From: Acidobacteria bacterium UBA2994
Lineage (GTDB): Bacteria; Acidobacteriota; Vicinamibacteria; Vicinamibacterales; UBA8438
Reading direction: 5' to 3'
Assembly (NCBI GenBank): GCA_002346545.1
Contig: DEAA01000026.1
Coordinates: 1 to 7,961, forward strand
Length of the DNA stretch: 7,961 nucleotides
Shown: positions 1 through 7,961 of the stretch, piece after piece
How the letters are laid out: every line of letters starts with the position of its first letter
Position numbering within the stretch: position 1 is the stretch's first letter
Made by a program: the position numbers and the translations under genes
Notes under the pieces: generated by a model
Database searches by the model: none
Told to the model about the DNA's origin: nothing
The model's input: only the letters and a program-made list of their open reading frames with translations

Positions 1-399
1 TGCCTCTCGGCGGGCGAAGGGATGCTCGACTCGCTGCGTCGCGTGTCGTCGGTGGGCGCCGGCGAGCTGACGGCCGAGATCCGGACCGCGGTGGTGGAGG
101 TGGGCACGGGGTCGTCGCTGGCGGATTCCCTCGCGGCGATGGCGCATCGGCTCGAGCTTCCCGCGCTCACACGCAGCGTCGATCAGATCGTCGCGGCCAT
201 CGACCGTGGTGCGCCGCTCGCCGACGTGCTCCACGCTCAGGCCGCCGACGCCCGCGAAGACGCCAAGCGCGCGCTCATCGAGAGTGCGGGACGCAAGGAG
301 ATCGCGATGTTGGTGCCCCTCGTCTTCATGATCCTGCCGCTGAGCGTTCTGTTCGCGGTCTTCCCCGGGATCCTCATGCTGCGGCTGGGGGTCGGATGA
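1..399 (+). CDS. tadC: TadC-like pilus inner-membrane platform protein, 3' end only
   Basis: This is the C-terminal 132 residues of a type II secretion F-domain protein; the frame is open to the window edge, so the start lies upstream. TadC sits with TadB in the cytoplasmic membrane as the platform on which the TadA ATPase assembles Flp/tad pili. Visible are the helical cytoplasmic F-domain part (GELTAEIRTAVVEVGTGSSL, then RGAPLADVLHAQAADAREDAKR) and one strong hydrophobic segment near the end (IAMLVPLVFMILPLSVLFAV), the usual TadB/TadC C-terminal layout. The call is supported by four small pilin-like genes directly downstream in the same direction. TadB or a GspF-type protein has the same fold; the position just before the pilin genes favours TadC. 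Methionine at 22 is unlikely to be the true start because coding continues upstream without a stop. Confidence 0.85.
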   Translation, partial: CLSAGEGMLDSLRRVSSVGAGELTAEIRTAVVEVGTGSSLADSLAAMAHRLELPALTRSVDQIVAAIDRGAPLADVLHAQAADAREDAKRALIESAGRKEIAMLVPLVFMILPLSVLFAVFPGILMLRLGVG

Positions 400-416
400 C
401 ACAGAAGGAGAATCGG

Positions 417-617
417 ATGTTGCGAATCTGGAGCCGCTTCGAGGTCGCCGTGCGTACGCGCATTGCCGACGCCCTGGAGGACGAGACCGGTGACGTGCCC
501 GGCTGGGTGCTGATCACGCTCATGACGGCCGGGCTCGTCGTGGTGATCTGGGCGCTCGCGGGTCCGGCGCTGGCCGGTCTGTTCGAGCAGGCGATCAACC
601 GCGTGTCGGGTCTCTGA
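417..617 (+). CDS. Small Flp/pilin-like membrane protein of the tad locus (66 aa)
   Basis: This short protein has a positively charged N-terminus, an acidic turn EDETGD (21-26) and one hydrophobic helix (about 30-52). That is the layout of class III prepilins and TadE-type pseudopilins. The ATG at 417 is preferred over the ATG at 396, which overlaps the tadC stop, because AGAAGGAG at 403-410 lies six bases before it. After the Gly25-Asp26 pair the +5 position is Trp30 rather than the glutamate usual in prepilin-peptidase substrates, so processing is uncertain. It lies where an Flp major pilin gene is expected, between tadC and tadE, but its sequence is not a standard Flp pilin. It may be a minor pilin-like or assembly component; the exact role is unknown. 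Confidence 0.7.
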   Translation: MLRIWSRFEVAVRTRIADALEDETGDVPGWVLITLMTAGLVVVIWALAGPALAGLFEQAINRVSGL

Positions 618-621
618 CCCG

Positions 622-1032
622 GTGACGAGGCTCCGCAGGCGCATCGCGGCCGCCCTCGCGGATGACACGGGTTCGGCGCCGGTCGAGTTCGTGCTCGTCG
701 GCGTGCTCCTGACCGCCCTCACGCTGGCCGTGCTGCAACTCGGCGTCGGACTGTACGTGCGCAACGTCGTCCACGACGCCGCCGCCGAGGGCGCGCACCG
801 CGCGGCGCTCGCCGATACGACGCTGGGCGAGGGCGCTGCGCGCACGCGTGAGATCGTCTCGCGAACGGTCGGGGCGGAGTACGCCGCCGACGTCGATGTC
901 ACGCAGACCTCCCATCTCGGACACCCGGCGGTTGCGGTGACCGTGCGCGCGACGCTGCCGCTGGCGGGTCTGTTCGGCCTGCCCCACGGGATGGAGGTGA
1001 CCGCGCATGCGCCCCTGGAGAGCTTCGACTGA
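622..1032 (+). CDS. TadE-like pseudopilin (136 aa)
   Basis: TadE-family minor pseudopilin of the Flp/tad pilus, needed in characterised systems for pilus assembly at the cytoplasmic membrane. A basic N-terminus (RLRRRIAAAL) is followed by DDTG-SAPVEF (14-23), where Gly17 with Glu22 at +5 fits a prepilin-peptidase (TadV/CpaA) site. One transmembrane helix (about 24-44) and a roughly 90-residue extracytoplasmic domain follow. The start is a GTG four bases after the stop of the upstream gene. No clear Shine-Dalgarno is seen, so translation probably depends on coupling to the upstream gene. Length and layout are typical of actinobacterial TadE-like proteins. The family assignment is firm; the specific role within the pilus is inferred. 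Confidence 0.85.
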   Translation: MTRLRRRIAAALADDTGSAPVEFVLVGVLLTALTLAVLQLGVGLYVRNVVHDAAAEGAHRAALADTTLGEGAARTREIVSRTVGAEYAADVDVTQTSHLGHPAVAVTVRATLPLAGLFGLPHGMEVTAHAPLESFD

Positions 1033-1528
1033 GCCGCGGTCCACGGCGACGCCCGCAACGGCTCTCAGGTGGCTGCACGCGAGGGCGACGCGTGTCGTCG
1101 CGGACGATGCCGGCTCGGCGGCGCTGGAGTTCATCGTGGTCGGTCTGCTGATGCTCGTGCCGCTGATCTACCTGGTGATCACGTTGTCGCTCGTTCAGCA
1201 TCAGTCGCTCGGCACCGAGGCCGCTGCGCGTCATATCGCGCGAGCGATCTCGACGGCCGAGGATGCCGGCGCCGCGGCCGGTCGGGTCGAGCGGGTGCTG
1301 GCATCGGTCGTCGACGAGTACGGCATCGATCCGGCCGCGGTGCGCGTCGAGGTCGGATGTCGCCCGGCCGGTGACTGTCCGCAAGCCGGCGCCCTGGTGG
1401 TGGTCACCGTGTCGGCGACCGTCGCGCTTCCGCTCGTTCCCGATGTGCTTGGGCTGGATCGCCTCGCCAGCGTGCCGGTCGAGGCCACCTCCGCGCAGAA
1501 GGTGTCGCGAACGTGGAGTGCGGGATGA
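1007..1528 (+). CDS. Second TadE-like pseudopilin (173 aa)
   Basis: A second pseudopilin-like protein with a longer basic N-terminus. The motif DDAG-SAALEF (33-42) has Gly36 and Glu41 at +5, matching a prepilin-peptidase site, and is followed by one transmembrane helix (about 43-63). The extracytoplasmic part contains two cysteines, Cys118 and Cys124 (VGCRPAGDCPQAG), that could form a small disulfide loop; the neighbouring TadE lacks them. The ATG at 1007 is preceded by GGAGG at 993-997 and overlaps the end of the previous gene by 26 bases, so the two are probably translationally coupled. It may be TadF-like, but actinobacterial TadE and TadF are hard to tell apart from sequence alone. Confidence 0.83.
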   Translation: MRPWRASTEPRSTATPATALRWLHARATRVVADDAGSAALEFIVVGLLMLVPLIYLVITLSLVQHQSLGTEAAARHIARAISTAEDAGAAAGRVERVLASVVDEYGIDPAAVRVEVGCRPAGDCPQAGALVVVTVSATVALPLVPDVLGLDRLASVPVEATSAQKVSRTWSAG

Positions 1529-1995
1529 GTCGCGCATCGTGTGAGGTCACGAAGCCTCGTGGGGGAGGGTCGGCTCGATGGCGCCGCGCAGCCGCGGGCG
1601 AGGAGGGCAGCATCCTGCCGCTCACCCTCGGCTACGTCGTCCTCGCCCTCGTCTTGGTGCTCGTGTGCGTCGACGCGACGAGCCTCTACCTCGCGCAGAA
1701 GCGCGTGGACGCGCTCGCCGACGGTGCCGCACTCGCGGGCGCCGACGGGTTCGTCGGCACCACCGTCGGGGGCGAGCCGACCGCGCGGCTGACCGATGCT
1801 GCGGTCGCTGAGCAGGCGTCCACGTTCCTCGGGGCGCTCGGCTCCGACGCGGCGATCGTGTCGGCGGGCTCACCCGACGGGGTATCCTCGCGAGTCACTG
1901 TCGCCGGTGTCTGGCATCCACCCGTCGTGACCCTGTTCGTCCCGGACGGAGTGCGTCTGGAGTCGACAGCGACCAGTCGCACCGTGCTCCGCTGA
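1525..1995 (+). CDS. TadG-like pilus locus protein (156 aa)
   Basis: Last gene of the tad operon. The N-terminus carries GEEGSILPLTLGYVVLALVL, a TadG/TadE N-terminal segment with one transmembrane helix (about 31-53), followed by the family-typical YLAQKRVDALADGAALAGAD (55-74), after which a compact extracytoplasmic domain follows. The ATG at 1525 overlaps the previous stop as ATGA and has GGAG six bases upstream. An in-frame GTG at 1513 is less likely because it would overlap further and lacks a ribosome binding site. Unlike full-length TadG proteins there is no von Willebrand A domain; short versions like this are common in actinobacteria. Leu33, not Glu, occupies +5 after Gly28, so prepilin-type cleavage is less certain than for the two TadE-like proteins. 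Confidence 0.8.
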   Translation: MSRASCEVTKPRGGGSARWRRAAAGEEGSILPLTLGYVVLALVLVLVCVDATSLYLAQKRVDALADGAALAGADGFVGTTVGGEPTARLTDAAVAEQASTFLGALGSDAAIVSAGSPDGVSSRVTVAGVWHPPVVTLFVPDGVRLESTATSRTVLR

Positions 1996-2043
1996 CAAGC
2001 GAGTCGATGACGGGCCGGCGTGGGTGTGGCGGCGTGCGCCGTG

Positions 2044-2071
2044 TGCGGTCAGGCGAGGCTGCGGTCAGGCG
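2044..2071. repeat. 12-bp tandem direct repeat at the end of the VOC gene
   Basis: TGCGGTCAGGCG occurs at 2044-2055 and again at 2060-2071, separated by four bases. The second copy contains the VOC gene's stop codon and the first lies just beyond it, so each copy carries a TGA on the minus strand. It is probably a small local duplication in the convergent gap between the tad operon and the VOC gene. Confidence 0.8.
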
Positions 2072-2457
2072 GGACTTGTGAGCTGGATGAGGTTTCCGCA
2101 CGTGTCGTCGAGCACGGCGGTGACGACCGGCCCCATCGCCACCGGCGCCTGCGTGAACGTCACCCCTCGCCCCGACAGCGCCGTGTGGCTCTCCCTGACG
2201 TCGTCGACGGTGAACGAAGCGGCCGGGATCCCGTCGGCCACGAGCGCCGCGCTGTACGTGCGCGCAGCCGGGTGTGCGTCAGGCTCGAGCAGAAGCTCGG
2301 GCCCCGACGGATCATCCGGGCTCACGACGGTGAGCCACCGGTGCTCGCCGAGGGGGATGTCGTTCTTCGCGACGAAACCGAGCACACCCGTGTAGAAGGC
2401 GAGGGCCTTCGACTGGTCGTCGACGAACACGCTGGTGAGGTTGATGCGGATGCTCAT
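2065..2457 (-). CDS. VOC family (glyoxalase/bleomycin-resistance fold) protein, 130 aa
   Basis: A single-domain vicinal-oxygen-chelate protein with two beta-alpha-beta-beta-beta modules. The first starts with NLTSVFVDDQSKALAFYTGVLGF (6-28) and the second with AASFTVDDV (79-87), ending in the characteristic DDTCGNLIQL (117-126). The family includes glyoxalases, extradiol dioxygenases and antibiotic-binding proteins; the substrate cannot be read from this sequence. The ATG at 2457 is chosen over one 14 codons upstream because GAAGGA (minus strand, 2468-2463) lies five bases before it and because it starts one base after the arsR stop (TGACATG). It is therefore the second gene of an arsR-VOC operon and is expected to be co-regulated by that repressor. 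The in-frame upstream extension would overlap the arsR gene. Confidence 0.9.
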   Translation of the reverse strand: MSIRINLTSVFVDDQSKALAFYTGVLGFVAKNDIPLGEHRWLTVVSPDDPSGPELLLEPDAHPAARTYSAALVADGIPAASFTVDDVRESHTALSGRGVTFTQAPVAMGPVVTAVLDDTCGNLIQLTSPA

Positions 2458-2458
2458 G

Positions 2459-2737
2459 TCAATCCTTCGCTGGTATCGGCCACCGTTCCGTGATCTCACG
2501 GAACGGCTCGGTGTGGAGGTGGTGGATCTTGGTGCGCCCGACCCTCGCGGAACTCACCAGCCCGGCGGATTCGAGCACCGCCAGGTGCTGCGAGATCGCC
2601 TGACGGCTCGAGTTCACGCCATGAGTCATGGTGAGCCGGCTGCACAGTTCGAACAGGCTCTGCCCATCGGCACGCGCGAGTTCGTCGAGGAGGAGCCGGC
2701 GCGTCGGGTCCGCGATCGCCGCATAGATGTCGGCCAC
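2459..2737 (-). CDS. ArsR-family winged-helix transcriptional repressor (92 aa)
   Basis: A compact ArsR/SmtB-fold regulator beginning ADIYAAIADPTRRLLLDEL, the usual family start. The recognition region is SRQAISQHLAVLESAGLV (44-61) and the wing contains RVGRTKIHHL. It lacks the paired-cysteine ELCVC metal site of arsenic sensors; only Cys32 is present in that helix. It therefore belongs with the non-metal ArsR proteins that are often paired with VOC or SRPBCC genes. GTG at 2737 is proposed as the start. A TTG 18 bases upstream is open, but the -10 box would then lie just upstream of, or inside, the coding region, and the family's normal N-terminus begins at the GTG. The -10 to GTG spacing implies a leaderless mRNA. 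It probably represses its own operon through the inverted repeat in the promoter spacer. Confidence 0.9.
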   Translation of the reverse strand: MADIYAAIADPTRRLLLDELARADGQSLFELCSRLTMTHGVNSSRQAISQHLAVLESAGLVSSARVGRTKIHHLHTEPFREITERWPIPAKD

Positions 2738-2744
2738 GCCGATC

Positions 2745-2774
2745 ACAATAGGCAAGTGCTAGCTTGCCTGTCAA
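2745..2774 (-). promoter_or_regulatory. Promoter of the arsR-VOC operon with probable operator in the spacer
   Basis: On the minus strand a consensus TTGACA (2774-2769) is followed after 18 bases by TATTGT (2750-2745). Seven further bases lead to the GTG at 2737, about where transcription should start. The whole 18-base spacer, GGCAAGTGCTAGCTTGCC on the plus strand (2751-2768), is an inverted repeat with perfect 6-bp arms GGCAAG/CTTGCC. An ArsR dimer bound there would block RNA polymerase directly. The hexamers and the repeat are seen in the sequence; the operator role is inferred. Confidence 0.75.
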
Positions 2775-2788
2775 GGCGCTGATAACTC

Positions 2789-2891
2789 GCTCGCGCCGCT
2801 GTTGTGCATCAACTCAGGCTGGAAGCGGCGCGAGCTGCCGACACGCCTCTGGTGCGCGGCCCGATCCGGTGGCCAGCCTGAGTTGTGGCAC
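2789..2891. repeat. Two interleaved perfect inverted repeats (pseudoknot topology); possible structured RNA or REP-like element
   Basis: Repeat A pairs GCTCGCGCCGCT (2789-2800) with AGCGGCGCGAGC (2824-2835), 12 bp and perfect. Repeat B pairs CAACTCAGGCTGG (2810-2822) with CCAGCCTGAGTTG (2873-2885), 13 bp and perfect, and continues after a 2x2 mismatch with four more pairs (2804-2807 with 2888-2891). The arms come in the order A-B-A-B and share no bases, so both stems can form at once as an H-type pseudoknot with one base (2823) between them. The 37-base loop can form a weaker hairpin (GCCG-A-CAC, 2837-2844, with GTG-CG-CGGC, 2852-2860). The element lies between the 3' end of the MFS operon and the arsR promoter, outside any convincing gene. 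No known RNA family was recognised. Confidence 0.7.
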
Positions 2892-3013
2892 GGCGGTGGC
2901 GGCAGACACAGCGGAGTGGTCCGGTACGGCGGCGGGAGCCGAGGCGGCGAGATGGCGGGAGTTGGAACGGCGGGAGCCGGGATGGCGGCACGGCGGGGCG
3001 TCAGGATCCGCGC
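2892..3013. repeat. G-rich degenerate repeat tract between genes
   Basis: Non-coding stretch downstream of the small Cys/His-rich gene. The 12-mer CGGCGGGAGCCG occurs at 2930-2941 and 2968-2979, and GATGGCGG at 2951-2958 and 2981-2988. Between them are further GGCGG variants. It reads as simple-sequence drift rather than an ordered array. The frames crossing it encode low-complexity Gly/Arg-rich peptides with no support as genes. Confidence 0.6.
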
Positions 3014-3379
3014 TCACCAGCCGATGGTGTTGAACCAGTCACGTCGGCGGAGGGCCTCGGATGCCGGTTCGGCCGGATCGGAGGTGTCGTGCGCGGCGAG
3101 GGTGTCGTTCACGAGTGAGACGAACCGGAGGCAGACCGGGCAGAGGGCACGGCCGTGGGGCCATCCGTCGGCCAGAGGCGTGGCGGCCCGGCCCTGTGCG
3201 CCGGACCCGGCACAGCGGAGGGGGTCTGCCGCGGCACCGGCCCACAGGATCGCGCGGTGCCGGTGCAGACCGGGGTGATCCAGCGGCCGGGTGCATCGTC
3301 GCCCGCGATGGCGGCTGCGGCAGAAGTGCACGGTGCTGTGTGAGGACGCGCCCGTGCTGGACGGCACGTCGGAGCTCAT
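3014..3379 (-). CDS. Small Cys/His-rich protein, putative zinc binder (121 aa)
   Basis: A hypothetical protein with metal-ligand-like spacing: Cys20-x8-Cys29-x5-His35-x3-His39 near the N-terminus (FCRSRHRGRRCTRPLDHPGLH), then Cys56, and a Cys80-x2-Cys83 knuckle (ALCPVCLRFV). It ends in DWFNTIGW. I believe similar uncharacterised proteins occur in Microbacteriaceae, but no function is known to me. The start at 3379 overlaps the MFS stop as ATGA, with GAGG five bases upstream, so it is probably translated by coupling to the transporter. The reading frame is open far upstream across the MFS gene, but that extension is an antisense-like shadow with Arg-rich content. Coding of the 121-residue part is supported by the coupling, the ribosome binding site and the ordered Cys/His pattern. 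Confidence 0.75.
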   Translation of the reverse strand: MSSDVPSSTGASSHSTVHFCRSRHRGRRCTRPLDHPGLHRHRAILWAGAAADPLRCAGSGAQGRAATPLADGWPHGRALCPVCLRFVSLVNDTLAAHDTSDPAEPASEALRRRDWFNTIGW

Positions 3380-4650
3380 CGCGACCTCGGCACGAATCGC
3401 GGCACCCACCGCACGAAGGCGCCGGCTCCGGCGAATGCGATCAGGCCGACGACGCCGACGGCGACCGGGAGGGATGCCGCTGCGGTGACCGCCGAGACGA
3501 GCAGAGGGCAGGCCGCGCCGCCGGCGTCGGTGAGCGTGCGCCACGACCCGAGGAACGGGGCGGGATCCGTCGGGGGAGCGACATCGGCACCGAGCGTGAG
3601 CAGGATGCCGCTGGACAGCCCGTTGCCGACACCGAGCACGGCGGCGAACATCGCGAACCACATCGCGGACTGCGCGCCGTCGTGGGTGACCGCGAGAGCG
3701 GCGAAACCGGCGCCCATCAGCACCATCGACGGAAGCGCCGCCCACAGACGCCCGAAACGGTCCATCACCTGACCGCTGGCGTAGAACAGGGCGAAGTCGA
3801 TCGCGCCGGAGATGCCGACGACGAGGGCGATGGTCTGCGCGTCGAGCCCGATCGACACGCCCCACAGCGGCAGCACGACTTGCCGGGCCGATCGCACGGC
3901 GGAGAGGGACGCCGCCGCGAGTCCGAGCCGCGACAGCACGACGCGGTAGCGCCACATCGTCGCGAACACCCCCTGTCGCCCGCCGACCGGGATGGTCCCG
4001 GAGACGGGTTCGCCGGTGTCCTCGCGGTCGCCGTCTTCGTCGGTCCTCACCCGCGGGCGACCGCGCTCGGGCACTGCGGTCTCGGGATCGGGGCCGAACA
4101 GCACCAGCAGGATGGTCGCGATCAGGCACGCGCCGAAGAACCAGATGGCGGCATGCTCGTCCCCGAAGACAGCCAGCAGGCTCGCGGCGATGAACGGACC
4201 GACGAACATGCCGAGACGGAATGTCCCGCCCAGCAGCGACAGCGCGCGTGCCCGGAACGACAGCGGCACCCGTGTGGTCATGAACGAGTGGCGGGCGAGG
4301 CCGAAGGCGGCGGCGCAGAGTCCGATGACGAAGACGGATGCGGCGAAGACCGGCAGTACCGGGGCCAGGGCCATCGCCACGACTCCCGTGAGTCCGATGA
4401 GCCCCGCAGCGGCCATCGTGATCCGTTCTCCGAATCGCGCGACGGCGTAGCCGGCGGGGATGTTGCCGGCCAGTTGGCCGATGACGAGTGACGAGGCCAC
4501 GAGCGCGCTCACCGCGACGTTCGCGCCGAGTTCGGCGGCGATGACGGGGATGAGCGGGATCACCGCCCCCTCGCCGAGGGCGAACAGCAGGGTGGGGCCG
4601 TAGATCATCGGCGCGAAGCGCGTGAGGATGCGTCCCGCGGATTCGGCCAT
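3376..4650 (-). CDS. Major facilitator superfamily transporter (424 aa)
   Basis: A polytopic membrane transporter of normal MFS length with about twelve hydrophobic segments in two halves. The loop between helices 2 and 3 carries [11 protein letters not shown] (67-77), a variant of MFS motif A. Its counterpart in the second half, GQVMDRFGR (293-301), is nearly canonical. A charged central loop (about 188-225, [20 protein letters not shown]) separates the halves. It is likely a drug/H+ antiporter-type or sugar-efflux-type carrier, but the substrate cannot be deduced. The ATG at 4650 has GGGAG four bases upstream. The gene is divergent from prfB across a 101-base gap and shares an ATGA overlap with the small Cys/His-rich gene downstream, with which it forms a two-gene unit. 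Confidence 0.92.
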
Positions 4651-4737
4651 GGTGCTCCCGACGATACCGCGCCACGGGCGCGCCCTCGGGGGAGCGGTCC
4701 CACGAGCGCGGATCAGCGGCCGCGGGCCCGACGGCGG

Positions 4738-4743
4738 TAGGCT
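4738..4743 (+). promoter_or_regulatory. -10 box TAGGCT upstream of prfB
   Basis: TAGGCT ends eight bases before the prfB ATG, which puts the expected transcription start at or within two bases of the start codon. The same hexamer stands before ftsE and a one-base variant before the DUF4287 gene. No good -35 element is seen 17-18 bases upstream. GGAG at 4744-4747 would serve as ribosome binding site only if transcription starts further upstream. Confidence 0.45.
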
Positions 4744-4751
4744 GGAGCGTC

Positions 4752-5864
4752 ATGCTTGAACTCGATATGTCCGCCGACATCCAGGCCCTGCGCTCGACCT
4801 TCTCCGATATCAAGGCCGTCGTCGATGTCGACGCGCTCGAGAAGGAGATCGCCCGGCTCAGCGACGCCGCCGCCGCTCCCGATCTCTGGGACGATGTGGA
4901 GAACGCGCAGAAGGTCACCAGCGCTCTCAGCCACCGTCAGCACGAGCTCAAGCGCGTCACCGAGGTCGAGAAGCGCATCGACGACCTCGAGGTTCTCGTG
5001 GAGCTCGCTGTCGAGATGGACGACGAGGATTCCGCCGAGGAGGCACGTCACGAGCTCGCTGAACTCGAAGACGTCGTCAACCAGCTCGAAGTTCAGACGC
5101 TGCTGGACGGCGAGTACGACGAACGCGCCGCGGTCGTCACCATCCGATCCGGTGCCGGCGGCGACGACGCGACGGACTTCGCGGAGATGCTGCTGCGCAT
5201 GTATCTGCGCTGGGCGGAGCGCCACGGCTACTCCACCAAGGTCATGGACACCTCCTACGCCGAAGGCGCCGGGATCAAGTCTGCGACGTTCGAGATCGAC
5301 GCCCCCTACGCCTACGGAACGCTGTCCGTCGAGGCGGGAACGCACCGGCTCGCCCGCATCAGCCCCTTCGGTGCCGCCGACAAGCGGCAGACGAGCTTCG
5401 CCGCCGTCGAGGTCATTCCGGTGATGGAGGAGGCGCAGGAGGTCGACATCCCCGAGAACGACATCCGCGTCGACGTGTTCCGCTCCTCGGGGCCCGGCGG
5501 TCAGTCGGTCAACACGACCGACTCGGCGGTGCGGCTGACCCACCTCCCGACCGGCATCGTGGTCTCGATGCAGAACGAGAAGTCGCAGATCCAGAACCGC
5601 GCTGCGGCGATGCGGGTGCTGCAGACCCGCCTGATGCTGCTGCAGAAGGAGGAGGAAGCGGCGAAGAAGAAGGAGCTCGCGGGCACCATCACCGCCAGCT
5701 GGGGCGATCAGATGCGCTCCTACTTCCTCTACGGCCAGCAGCTCGTGAAAGACCTTCGCACCGGTCACGAGGTCGGGAACCCCGCGACGGTGTTCGACGG
5801 CGACCTCGACGGCTTCATCGCCGCGGGAATCCGGTGGCGCAAGCGCAAAGACGACGACGACTGA
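4752..5864 (+). CDS. prfB: Peptide chain release factor 2 (370 aa)
   Basis: Cytoplasmic class I release factor that reads UGA and UAA stop codons and triggers peptidyl-tRNA hydrolysis. The coiled N-terminal domain (about 1-115) is followed by the codon-recognition domain, with the RF2-specific tripeptide Ser204-Pro205-Phe206 (RF1 has PxT). The catalytic Gly249-Gly250-Gln251 lies in [20 protein letters not shown]. Full family length; the start [14 protein letters not shown] matches the usual actinobacterial N-terminus. The gene is one continuous frame without the in-frame UGA and +1 slip found in many bacteria, as expected for high-GC Gram-positives. At 207-211 it reads GAADK, where related proteins usually have a glycine before the Lys-Arg, a mild departure. 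It heads the conserved prfB-ftsE neighbourhood. Confidence 0.97.
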
Positions 5865-5871
5865 TATCTCG

Positions 5872-5885
5872 GCCGCTTCGGCGGT
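5872..5885 (+). terminator. Short UUCG-loop hairpin after prfB (weak)
   Basis: CCGC-TTCG-GCGG (5873-5884), extendable by one G-U pair, begins eight bases after the prfB stop. The UUCG tetraloop is very stable, but the stem is only four or five pairs and no T-run follows. At most it is a weak terminator or an mRNA-stabilising hairpin. Confidence 0.3.
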
Positions 5886-5891
5886 ATCCGC

Positions 5892-5897
5892 TAGCCT
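5892..5897 (+). promoter_or_regulatory. -10 box TAGCCT upstream of the DUF4287 gene
   Basis: TAGCCT stands 27 bases before the ATG at 5925. The predicted transcription start near 5904 would give a short leader of about 20 bases that contains GGAGGAG at 5913-5919, five bases before the start codon. No convincing -35 hexamer is visible. Confidence 0.45.
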
Positions 5898-5924
5898 TCG
5901 CATGACCGCATCGGAGGAGTCACC

Positions 5925-6218
5925 ATGTCGTTCCAGGCGTATCTCGACAACATCGAGGCCAAGACCGGTGTCACGCCGCGAGAGTTCATCGTGAGGGCGA
6001 CCGAGAGGGGCTTCGGACCGGAGACCAAGGCGGCCCCGATCCTCGCCTGGCTGAAGGACGAGTACGGCCTCGGCCGCGGACACGGCATGGCGCTCGTGCA
6101 TGTGATCACGAAGGGCGAGCGCATCGATGCGAAGCACGTCGGCACAGACGGTTCGCACCGCGACGCGGTCGACACGCTCTGGCTCGACGGTGCGGCCTCG
6201 AATCCACATCCGGGGTGA
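5925..6218 (+). CDS. DUF4287 domain protein (97 aa)
   Basis: A small soluble protein of the DUF4287 family. It shows the family's characteristic stretches FQAYLDNIEAKTGVTP (3-18), ILAWLKDEYGLGRGHGMALVH (39-59) and a KHVG...HRDAVDTLWLDG tail (69-88). The fold is probably helical; the molecular function is not established, though relatives are often fused or adjacent to DUF5655-type domains. The ATG has a strong ribosome binding site, GGAGGAG, five bases upstream. It lies between prfB and ftsE, which are usually adjacent in actinobacteria, and has its own promoter-like -10 box, so it looks like an independent insertion into that neighbourhood. Codon use matches the flanking prfB. Confidence 0.9.
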   Translation: MSFQAYLDNIEAKTGVTPREFIVRATERGFGPETKAAPILAWLKDEYGLGRGHGMALVHVITKGERIDAKHVGTDGSHRDAVDTLWLDGAASNPHPG

Positions 6219-6306
6219 TGGCCGGTGATCGTGACCCCGTTCCTGTTCATTCGTTATGTGACGGGCGAGCCAGGGTGTCGCTGAGGGTGTGACGGATGCG
6301 CTCGCC

Positions 6307-6312
6307 TAGGCT
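6307..6312 (+). promoter_or_regulatory. -10 box TAGGCT upstream of ftsE
   Basis: TAGGCT ends nine bases before the ATG at 6322. The bases between (CGTCTCGCC) hold no Shine-Dalgarno sequence, which fits a leaderless or nearly leaderless ftsE transcript. The same hexamer precedes prfB. Confidence 0.5.
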
Positions 6313-6321
6313 CGTCTCGCC

Positions 6322-7002
6322 ATGATCCGGTTCGAGAACGTCACCAAGCGCTATCGCGGCACCAAGAGCCCCGCGCTCGACAACGTCGACTTCGAGGTGC
6401 TCCGCGGCGAGTTCGTCTTCCTCGTCGGCGCGTCGGGATCGGGGAAGTCGTCGTGTCTGCGCCTCATCCTGCGCGAGGAGGTGCCGAGCGACGGTCGCGT
6501 CGTCGTGCTCGGACGTGACCTGCGCACGCTGTCCAGTCGCAAGGTTCCCTACTTCCGCCGTCACGTCGGCGCCGTGTTCCAGGACTTCCGCCTGCTTCCG
6601 GGCAAGACCGTCTTCCAGAACGTCGCCTTCACCCTGCAGGTGATCGGCTCCTCCCGCGCCTTCATCCAGCAGGCGGTGCCGGAGGTGCTCGCCCTGGTGG
6701 GCCTGGCCGGCAAGGAGAAGCGGATGCCGCACGAGCTCTCGGGAGGAGAGCAGCAGCGCGTGCCCATCGCCCGGGCCATCGTCACCAATCCCGAAATCAT
6801 CGTGGCCGACGAGCCGACCGGGGATCTGGACAAACCCTCGGCTGACGCCGTTATGCAGTTGCTGCAACGGCTGAAGGATGAGCTGGGCAAGACCATGATC
6901 ATGGTCACGCACGATCCGGGAACATCACGCTATGCCCAAAAGACATTGCACCTGGATAAGGGACGACTTGTGACGCTGGATGACCAGGAGGCCCCAGCAT
7001 GA
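6322..7002 (+). CDS. ftsE: FtsE-type ATPase N-terminus joined to a MacB/LolD/DevA-type ATPase C-terminus (226 aa)
   Basis: Residues 1 to about 147 are actinobacterial FtsE, the ATPase that with FtsX controls peptidoglycan hydrolases at the division septum. Walker A is GASGSGKS (36-43), the Q-loop Gln87 is in [10 protein letters not shown], and the signature is LSGGEQ (139-144). From about residue 148 the protein stops looking like Fts[13 protein letters not shown], Walker B IIVADE (159-164), the D-loop TGDLD (166-170), MVTHDPG with His197, and LHLDKGRLV (209-217) resemble lipoprotein or macrolide exporter ATPases. An FtsE would continue with something like MATHEAG. All nucleotide-binding motifs are present, so the frame is open and could in principle be functional. 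Base composition drops after the switch. The downstream gene is a MacB-like permease, not ftsX. I regard this as two half-genes joined at a conserved motif. Confidence 0.85.
6740..6790. other. Breakpoint between actinobacterial and foreign sequence inside ftsE
   Basis: The change of protein family falls in or just after the segment coding for the LSGGEQQRV signature, which is nearly identical across ABC ATPases and so offers shared bases for recombination or for a false assembly join. Before it, 42 of 60 bases at 6421-6480 are G or C. After it, 27 of 60 are at 7201-7260. The exact base cannot be fixed because both parents probably share the motif. Confidence 0.75.
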
Positions 7003-7961
7003 TCACGCCACGATTCGTTCCCTTCGTGTTGAAGCAGGTCATCCGACACCCGTTGCGCACTATCCTGACCGTGGGCGGAGTGGCGACGGCAATGTTCCTG
7101 TTCATTGCCGTACAGGCAATGCAACGAGGCGTGCATGCGGCGACAGTTGAAGAGGCGGAGGACACCACGCTAGTGGTCTATCGTGAAAATCGCTTCTGCC
7201 CTTTCACGAGTCGTTTACCCCAGCATTACATGGATCAGATCGAAAAGATTGATGGCGTACGGACGGTAACGCCCATGAAGGTGGTGGTCAATAATTGCCG
7301 AACCAGCCTGGACGTGGTGACCTTTCGCGGCGTGCATGTCGCATCTTTCATTGAGCAGCATGACTCGCAATTGCGCGTGATCGACGGTTCGACAGCCCAG
7401 TGGGAACACCGCAGCGACGCAGCCCTGCTGGGTGAGACCTTGGCCCGACGCCGCGGACTGAATGTTGGTGACCGCTTCGACACCGCCGGGGTGACCTCCT
7501 ACGTGGCCGGTATCGTGCAATCCACTGAACCTCAAGTCGAGAACGCAGCCTACGTGCACCTGGACTTCCTGCAGCAAGCCACTGACCGCACTCTCGGCAT
7601 CGTGACCCAATTTAACGTCAAGGTGAATGAGCCGTCACAACTTGACGCCGTGGCTGCTGCCATCGACGACTTATTTCACACTGCAGAGGCCCCAACAACA
7701 ACTCGATCAGAAAAGGCCTTCGTGTCCCACGTGGCAACTGACATAATCGAACTAATCGAATCCACACGGTGGCTAGGTTACGGTTGTCTGGCAGCGGTGC
7801 TGGCGCTGGTCGGTAACGCCATCGTGCTCAGTGCTCAAGACCGGATCAAGGAGCACGCGATTCTTCAAACGCTGGGTTATAAGGGTGGACTGATCGGTCG
7901 CCTGATTATCAGTGAGGCAATCGTGGTCACCCTGATGGGTGGCACCGTCGGCAGCACCGTT
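6999..7961 (+). CDS. MacB-like ABC transporter permease, 5' part (321 aa, runs off the window)
   Basis: Membrane subunit of a MacB/LolC/DevC-type ABC exporter. After a short cytoplasmic N-terminus there is a first transmembrane helix (about 21-40), then a large extracytoplasmic MacB-PCD-like domain (about 41-255). A second helix (about 259-279) leads into the FtsX-like permease domain, with the typical coupling-helix region QDRIKEHAILQTLGYKGG (280-297) and SEAIVVTLMGG. Cys67 and Cys100 could form a disulfide. The ATG overlaps the upstream stop as ATGA and has AGGAGG seven bases upstream, so it is co-translated with the ATPase. Codons such as TTA, CTA, ATA and AAT are used freely, unlike the genes before 6,750. 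The large periplasmic domain excludes ordinary actinobacterial FtsX. A planctomycete-like origin is my impression only. Confidence 0.85.
   Translation, partial: MITPRFVPFVLKQVIRHPLRTILTVGGVATAMFLFIAVQAMQRGVHAATVEEAEDTTLVVYRENRFCPFTSRLPQHYMDQIEKIDGVRTVTPMKVVVNNCRTSLDVVTFRGVHVASFIEQHDSQLRVIDGSTAQWEHRSDAALLGETLARRRGLNVGDRFDTAGVTSYVAGIVQSTEPQVENAAYVHLDFLQQATDRTLGIVTQFNVKVNEPSQLDAVAAAIDDLFHTAEAPTTTRSEKAFVSHVATDIIELIESTRWLGYGCLAAVLALVGNAIVLSAQDRIKEHAILQTLGYKGGLIGRLIISEAIVVTLMGGTVGSTV

What the first reader, a model, noticed from the sequence alone, without database searches (positions are those of the whole stretch)
2789..2891. Interleaved perfect inverted repeats with pseudoknot topology in an intergenic region
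Two perfect inverted repeats of 12 and 13 bp are arranged A-B-A'-B' within 97 bases and share no positions, so an RNA copy could form a long H-type pseudoknot with nearly coaxial stems (one base between them). A third weaker hairpin fits in the long loop. Two such matches nested this way are hard to explain by GC bias. Possibilities are an undescribed structured RNA in the 3' region of the MFS operon, a REP/MITE-like element, or a DNA-level recognition site. I recognised no known family, and the motif did not fit the twister consensus when I compared it from memory.
Basis: partly seen in the sequence, partly recalled or inferred. Interest (0 to 1): 0.75.

Follow-up and report, generated by a model that had tools for sequence, protein, structure and literature searches.

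The report
Scattered paired sites shadow a nuclease
This stretch is one copy of a family of paired, inverted DNA sites scattered between the genes of Microbacterium bacteria, and it is likely the target of a resident DNA-cutting enzyme whose own gene is flanked by such pairs, rather than the knotted RNA first suspected.

Summary
The inverted repeats are real, but the pseudoknot is not a family feature. B/B' is the inner part of a 29-nt arm pair (2794-2822/2873-2901; 23 Watson-Crick, 4 G-U, 2 mismatches). Relatives exist: 31 of 295 Microbacterium genomes have copies at E<=1e-3 (a lower bound); 103 distinct copies were registered. Arms are genome-specific. Spacing between arm cores falls in three classes about one helical turn apart (48-50, 59-61, 71-73; 103 of 103; window 60). 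Arms pair about as well with arms of other copies in the same genome as with their own partner, so each copy looks like two inverted protein sites rather than a conserved RNA stem. A:A' (12 bp) is unmatched in the other 102 copies. No RAYT transposase was found in 53 of 53 genomes. The pairs instead stand beside genes of one DUF559/MTES_1575 nuclease clade (13 of 15 loci, against 0 of 15 other DUF559 loci), predicted to join an AbiEi-like part to a Vsr/homing-endonuclease-like part. Best reading: a REPIN-like system run by an unrelated nuclease. Binding, cutting and movement are untested.

The parts
2794..2822 (+). left arm of the element
   Evidence: (I1): 29-nt arm, 23 WC + 4 G-U + 2 mismatches with 2873-2901
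2873..2901 (+). right arm of the element (inverted)
2804..2817 (+). core site, left (GTGCATCAACTCAG; family consensus GTGCACGAACTCAG)
2878..2891 (-). core site, right (inverted), 60 nt from the left core
   Evidence: spacing class 59-61
2818..2877 (.). spacer between the cores; sequence varies in the family, length falls in three classes
2789..2800 (+).
2824..2835 (+). A' arm, inside the spacer; copy-specific
2745..2774 (-). sigma-70-like promoter TTGACA-18-TATTGT of the arsR-like gene, with inverted repeat AGGCAAG/CTTGCCT (2750-2769) between the hexamers; not part of the element, marks one limit of its intergenic slot
   Evidence: sequence
2459..2755 (-). ArsR/HTH_20 regulator gene on one side (context)
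3014..3388 (-). open frame of a Microbacterium-type small protein without a Pfam match on the other side (context; start codon uncertain)

Best explanation
The element at 2794-2901 is one copy of a dispersed family of paired inverted sites in Microbacterium, and it is likely bound and spread by a resident DUF559/MTES_1575 nuclease whose gene is flanked by the same kind of pairs. Shown by the calls: extragenic dispersal; genome-specific arms; core spacing in steps of about one helical turn; varying spacer sequence; hairpins of this design beside the nuclease gene, which keeps one chromosomal place in the 30 genomes compared (29 by both flanks, one by the downstream flank only). Inferred: the nuclease's AbiEi-like N-terminal part binds the two inverted sites on one face of the DNA, as AbiEi and Rv2827c bind paired 23-bp inverted repeats; its Vsr-like C-terminal part cuts there; repair copies the pair elsewhere (as RAYT is thought to do for REPINs). 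The nuclease gene itself would be a vertically kept resident, not a moving IS. In this window the copy probably sits passively between the end of the MFS operon and the arsR promoter.
Confidence: 0.55

Rival explanations
1. Fixed operator sites: the pairs are stationary binding sites of the AbiEi-like nuclease (or another regulator), used for autoregulation, gene control or chromosome organisation, with no mobility.
For: AbiEi-type proteins bind paired inverted repeats at their own promoter; helical phasing; pairs next to the nuclease gene; some dispersed copies are orthologous in related genomes (L147/L148, L142/L143, L194/L195 among the 46 locus pairs printed); no empty site seen.
Against: Only 17 of 92 classified slots lie between divergent genes, 40 tandem and 35 convergent (all adjacent gene pairs of the same loci: 31, 107 and 51), an unlikely spread for promoter operators; arrays of similar copies in tandem (L156, L160, L183, L186).
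Confidence: 0.22
2. Structured RNA: a long hairpin or H-type pseudoknot acting in the transcript, for example as a 3' element of the MFS operon.
For: Strong fold energies on both strands; the window's four wobble pairs are G-U on the + strand; slight true-partner excess in the core (18 of 500).
Against: Over the whole arms, pairing with the true partner is no better than with other copies' arms in the same genome; the pseudoknot pair is specific to this copy; on the 7-copy alignment covariation did not exceed shuffles; no Rfam match.
Confidence: 0.08
3. MITE moved by an ordinary insertion sequence whose terminal repeats it carries.
For: Inverted arms, dispersal, tandem copies; one Mutator-type transposase (PF00872) among the neighbours.
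Against: Spacers differ between copies even in one genome while their length is kept, whereas a MITE usually keeps its inside (recalled). Target-site duplications were not tested, and the neighbour listing shows only 25 of 146 and 25 of 138 families, so an IS link is not excluded.
Confidence: 0.1
4. Transcription terminators, used on both strands.
For: 35 of 92 classified copies lie between convergent genes; G+C-rich hairpins.
Against: No terminator-like site in window 2500-3300; loops far longer than those of intrinsic terminators; 17 of 92 in divergent slots; genome-specific arm sequence is not needed for a terminator.
Confidence: 0.04

Closest known systems
REPINs with RAYT (REPtrons), Pseudomonas and others (PMC3116915, PMC3733652; passages seen)
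   Same: Two inverted copies of a short conserved sequence around a less conserved spacer, preferred spacings (71 and 110 bp there), extragenic dispersal, clusters, enzyme gene flanked by the repeats.
   Different: The associated enzyme is an AbiEi/Vsr-like nuclease, not an HUH tyrosine transposase (PF01797 in 0 of 53 genomes); spacing comes in one-turn steps; a GTAG/CGTC tag was not tested for.
TIRtrons (RAYT-like genes flanked by long TIRs; PMC3733652, passages)
   Same: Enzyme gene flanked by inverted repeats that form moderate repeat families.
   Different: Enzyme family, as above.
AbiEi / Rv2827c autoregulation (PMC7319586, passages)
   Same: AbiEi-like fold suggested for residues 7-180; paired inverted repeats of about 20 bp; spacings that differ by about one turn (3 against 13 bp).
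   Different: Much longer spacer (48-73 nt between cores), dispersed copies, nuclease domain fused; a DUF1814 toxin partner was not looked for.
I-Bth0305I homing endonuclease and Vsr
   Same: C-terminal domain fold; conserved acidic residues.
   Different: No intron or mismatch-repair setting seen; a different N-terminal part.
Neisseria NEMIS/Correia elements (recalled, no call)
   Same: Dispersed hairpins of about 100-150 bp with about 26-bp arms.
   Different: As recalled, a conserved inside and a transposase link; not tested here.

Membership tests
REPIN/REP with RAYT | inverted doublet of a short conserved sequence with variable spacer | tested here: met
REPIN/REP with RAYT | dispersed in extragenic space, several copies per genome | tested here: met
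REPIN/REP with RAYT | RAYT (Y1_Tnp, PF01797) in the genome | tested here: not met
   0 of 53 genomes (32 with copies); the control rings in 5 of 14 named genomes
REPIN/REP with RAYT | REP with a GTAG or CGTC tag at one end | not tested
   no test made
MITE | conserved internal sequence shared by copies | tested here: not met
   spacers differ; alike mainly in local tandem arrays (judged by eye)
MITE | target-site duplication | not tested
   no empty site available
H-type pseudoknot RNA | both stems kept in relatives | tested here: not met
H-type pseudoknot RNA | transcript | not testable with these tools
   no RNA reads
Rfam families | match at gathering score in the window, or E<=5 in 2700-3020 | tested here: not met
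   no match
DUF559/MTES_1575 (Vsr-like) nuclease, for the associated protein | Pfam match and fold | tested here: met
   PF18741 over the cut-off in two of four members scanned, just under it in the other two (35.9 and 35.3 of 38.2); 3hrl at E 4.5e-4
AbiEi-like DNA-binding part, for the associated protein | Pfam AbiEi_4 match or fold | tested here: inconclusive

The most novel reading that the evidence does not exclude
A new kind of repeat-and-enzyme partnership: AbiEi-Vsr (DUF559/MTES_1575) nucleases each keep and move their own population of helically phased inverted site pairs, a RAYT/REPIN counterpart built on a PD-(D/E)XK nuclease; other DUF559 subfamilies in the same genus carry their own, different hairpin families beside their genes.
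Probability: 0.42. Interest if true: 0.86.

Novelty: new variant of a known kind. Interest (0 to 1): 0.74.

Why it matters
REPINs are the best-known case of short bacterial repeats tied to a resident, domesticated transposase, and as far as I recall only HUH enzymes are known in that role. A population of repeats that tracks a Vsr-like nuclease would show that the partnership arose more than once, and would suggest a role for the little-studied DUF559/MTES_1575 proteins, which matched in 26 of 26 Microbacterium genomes searched. It is testable in one genus: arm sequence and nuclease should change together, and spacing should tolerate only whole turns.

Tried and rejected
Search in the host assembly (one place) and in the 28 genomes of its assigned family (short hits) led nowhere, because the window is a whole 7961-base contig (C2) that looks misbinned: G000 holds two further release-factor matches (45% and 42% identity), the neighbouring 124-aa frame has no match in the other 27 of those 28 genomes, and its named relatives are nearly all Microbacterium. 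BLAST against plasmids and phages gave only short weak hits (4 records and 1 record, best E 0.1). Relatives of the arsR gene share the gene and promoter, not the element (matches end at window about 2775). Of five genomes with a DNA hit at E<=1e-3 in the genus only L121 proved a relative; L120 (82% over 60 nt, E 8.6e-7) and L122-L124 gave no R1 hit below E 0.1 and stay unexplained. In the pattern search the reversed control pattern gave 1 place in G141 (8 real), 2 in G080 (3 real), 1 in G000 (3 real) and 1 in G028 (0 real). Pseudoknot as a family feature: rejected. RAYT: not found. A covariation argument for RNA was dropped: on the 7-copy alignment 47-141 of 500 shuffles reached the observed measures, and within-genome dealing removes nearly all of the signal. 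Empty site: none in what was looked at. Neighbour families: 133 of the 137 frames were scanned; PF18741 matched 2 of 67 in the second set, no more than several unrelated families, so it was only a lead until. A first registration by regular expression placed 83 of 103 copies, in the same classes but for one at 82 that the profile registration did not keep. Literature: the listings showed nothing on DUF559 or MTES_1575 with repeats, or on such repeats in Microbacterium; 14 papers hold 'DUF559', of which one was opened (passages). This covers open-licence papers only. Rv2827c (1zel) is in the Foldseek list (E 0.017) but not among the 50 rows.

Limits: one search used strict filters and scored 13 candidates per genome, so counts are lower bounds and lean to arms like the window's. 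R1 was trained on 59-60-nt spacings; intermediate lengths should have scored better than 49 or 72, which makes a search artefact unlikely for the gaps between classes. The 198 rows were merged by hand to 103 copies (opposite strands; the two L133 copies are those of L130). The clade/other split of the 30 loci was made by eye from translations (whose output was cut for some loci) and agrees with the places or genome counts; for L216, L227 and L236 one search prints no place and the split rests on the translation. Gene bounds of the other 15 were assumed.

Full report
WHAT IS THERE. The two interleaved perfect repeats are present as described and are more than the window's composition gives (two perfect inverted repeats of 12 bp or more with a gap up to 60, against a mean of 0.225 in 40 simulated windows). 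But B/B' is the inner end of a longer arm pair, 2794-2822 with 2873-2901: 23 Watson-Crick pairs, 4 G-U pairs on the + strand, 2 mismatches. A overlaps the outside of that arm, so A:A' and the long stem exclude each other. Folding chooses the long stem on both strands. Nothing in Rfam matches.

WHERE THE WINDOW COMES FROM. The window is the whole of contig C2 of its assembly. That assembly holds two more release-factor matches at 45% and 42% identity, the neighbouring 124-aa frame has no match in the other 27 of the 28 genomes of the assigned family, and its relatives with names are nearly all from Microbacterium (one Leifsonia). C2 is therefore probably a misbinned Microbacterium contig, and the single copy found in G000 says nothing about copy number in the true host.

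RELATIVES. A search of 295 Microbacterium genomes with the element's DNA gave five genomes at E<=1e-3. One of the hits, in G141, holds two hairpins with the same arms between convergent genes; a pattern search then gave 8 places in that genome and 3 in G080 (reversed control 1 and 2). A covariance model from seven copies hit 31 of the 295 genomes at E<=1e-3, with up to 12 rows, both strands counted, in one genome (strict filters). From 78 sources, the window included, 103 distinct copies were taken.

ANATOMY OF THE FAMILY. The copies have two inverted arms around a core whose consensus is GTGCACGAACTCAG. Arms are alike within a genome and differ between genomes (for example GCGTGCAACAACTCAGTCTG in G302, CGGCGCATAACTCAGGCAGA in G263, CGTGTCGGAATTCAGGCTG in G155). 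The spacer's sequence varies but its length is restricted: distances between the cores are 48-50 in 35 copies, 59-61 in 41 and 71-73 in 27, and nothing else, 103 of 103 (window 60). The step is about 11 nt, one turn of a helix. Arms pair with their own partner hardly better than with arms of other copies in the same genome (21.28 against 21.17 of 32, sd 0.18, n=85; in the 14-nt core alone 12.21 against 12.05, reached by 18 of 500 dealings), but much better than with arms of other genomes (21.33 against 16.66, sd 0.26, n=103). Orthologous copies in G083, G172 and G257 keep their arms and change their spacers more. These results point to two inverted protein sites on one face of the double helix rather than to a selected RNA stem. 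The A:A' pairing is special to this copy. Copies lie between genes: 40 tandem, 35 convergent and 17 divergent slots, 6 at locus edges, 5 inside a predicted gene (simple gene finder of my own).

THE PARTNER GENE. RAYT-type transposases (PF01797) gave no match in 53 of 53 genomes tested, 32 of them with copies. Among 133 neighbour proteins DUF559/MTES_1575 appeared twice, which was only a lead. At 30 DUF559 loci, R1 finds elements at E<=0.011 in 13 of the 15 that belong to one clade and in 0 of the other 15 (clade); 22 other loci give none below E 0.1. A member of the clade occurs in 195 of 295 genomes at E<=1e-25, in 28 of the 31 carriers and 167 of the 264 others. At the best place in each of 30 genomes, R1 reaches E<0.05 in 15, and a hairpin scan that knows no sequence finds a flanking hairpin in 26, on both sides in 11, against 14% and 0.2% of random pseudo-genes; three of the remaining four have R1 hits there (L239, L245, L256), so only L243 has neither. 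The flanking arms vary widely (CGTACCGATTGCAGGA, GTTCCGTACTCAGGA, GTGCATAACTCCGCCT). The 30 loci are one syntenic place: every pair shares the downstream flank, and 29 are joined by both flanks. So the gene is inherited in place while its flanking sites change; this also means that the 30 are not independent. A further clade gene of G189, L227, lies elsewhere in that genome than its best one (L268) and has hairpins of its own. Dispersed arms resemble the flanking arms of the same genome more than chance (ranks 1-8 of 31 in nine usable cases), though not always best, and not at all in L250.

MECHANISM. Shown: a dispersed, helically phased, inverted pair of genome-specific sites, and its standing beside a nuclease gene. 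Inferred: the nuclease's N-terminal part reads the pair, the C-terminal part cuts, and repair spreads copies. Rival: fixed operators of the same protein. The RNA reading is now unlikely.

AGAINST KNOWN THINGS. REPINs with RAYT (PMC3116915, PMC3733652, passages) are the nearest: inverted doublets, variable spacer, preferred spacings of 71 and 110 bp, enzyme gene flanked by repeats. The system works like a REPIN but fails its defining enzyme test, so it is not filed as one. MTES_1575 nucleases are described as Vsr-type REase domains in giant conflict proteins (PMC3710099, passages), and DUF559 as a domain of Vsr-like nucleases (PMC12907096, passages); the passages seen do not mention repeats of this kind.

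Noticed in passing
window 1-7961 (whole contig C2 of G000): Probably a misbinned Microbacterium contig in an assembly of another family: extra release-factor gene and Microbacterium-type neighbours.
   Followed up: partly
L214, L221, L223, L229, L232, L234, L235: Other DUF559 subfamilies stand beside hairpins of other sequence (for example CGCCGATGTCTCACTT on both sides in L232, CGCAGAATCGC words in L214 and L235); 10 of 15 such loci share a 12-mer across the assumed gene, against 17% of pseudo-genes.
   Followed up: partly
L239-L268: The clade nuclease sits at one conserved chromosomal place in the 30 genomes compared (29 by both flanks, L266 by the downstream flank).
   Followed up: yes
window 2745-2774 (-): arsR-like gene with TTGACA-18-TATTGT promoter holding an inverted repeat (likely its operator); a GTG right after the -10 box suggests a leaderless or very short-leader message.
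   Followed up: no
spacers of several copies, e.g. window 2838-2849, L140, L147, L148, L151, L152, L168: The word CGACACGCC / GGCGTGTCG recurs in spacers (seen by eye, not counted or tested).
   Followed up: no
L156, L160, L173, L183, L186: Arrays of three similar copies at intervals of about 148-244 bp.
   Followed up: no
L120 1501-1560 (G080): A 60-nt match to window 2825-2881 (82%, E 8.6e-7) that is not an R1 element; not explained.
   Followed up: partly
window 2930-2997: Degenerate direct repeat CGGCGGGAGCCG beside the element.
   Followed up: no
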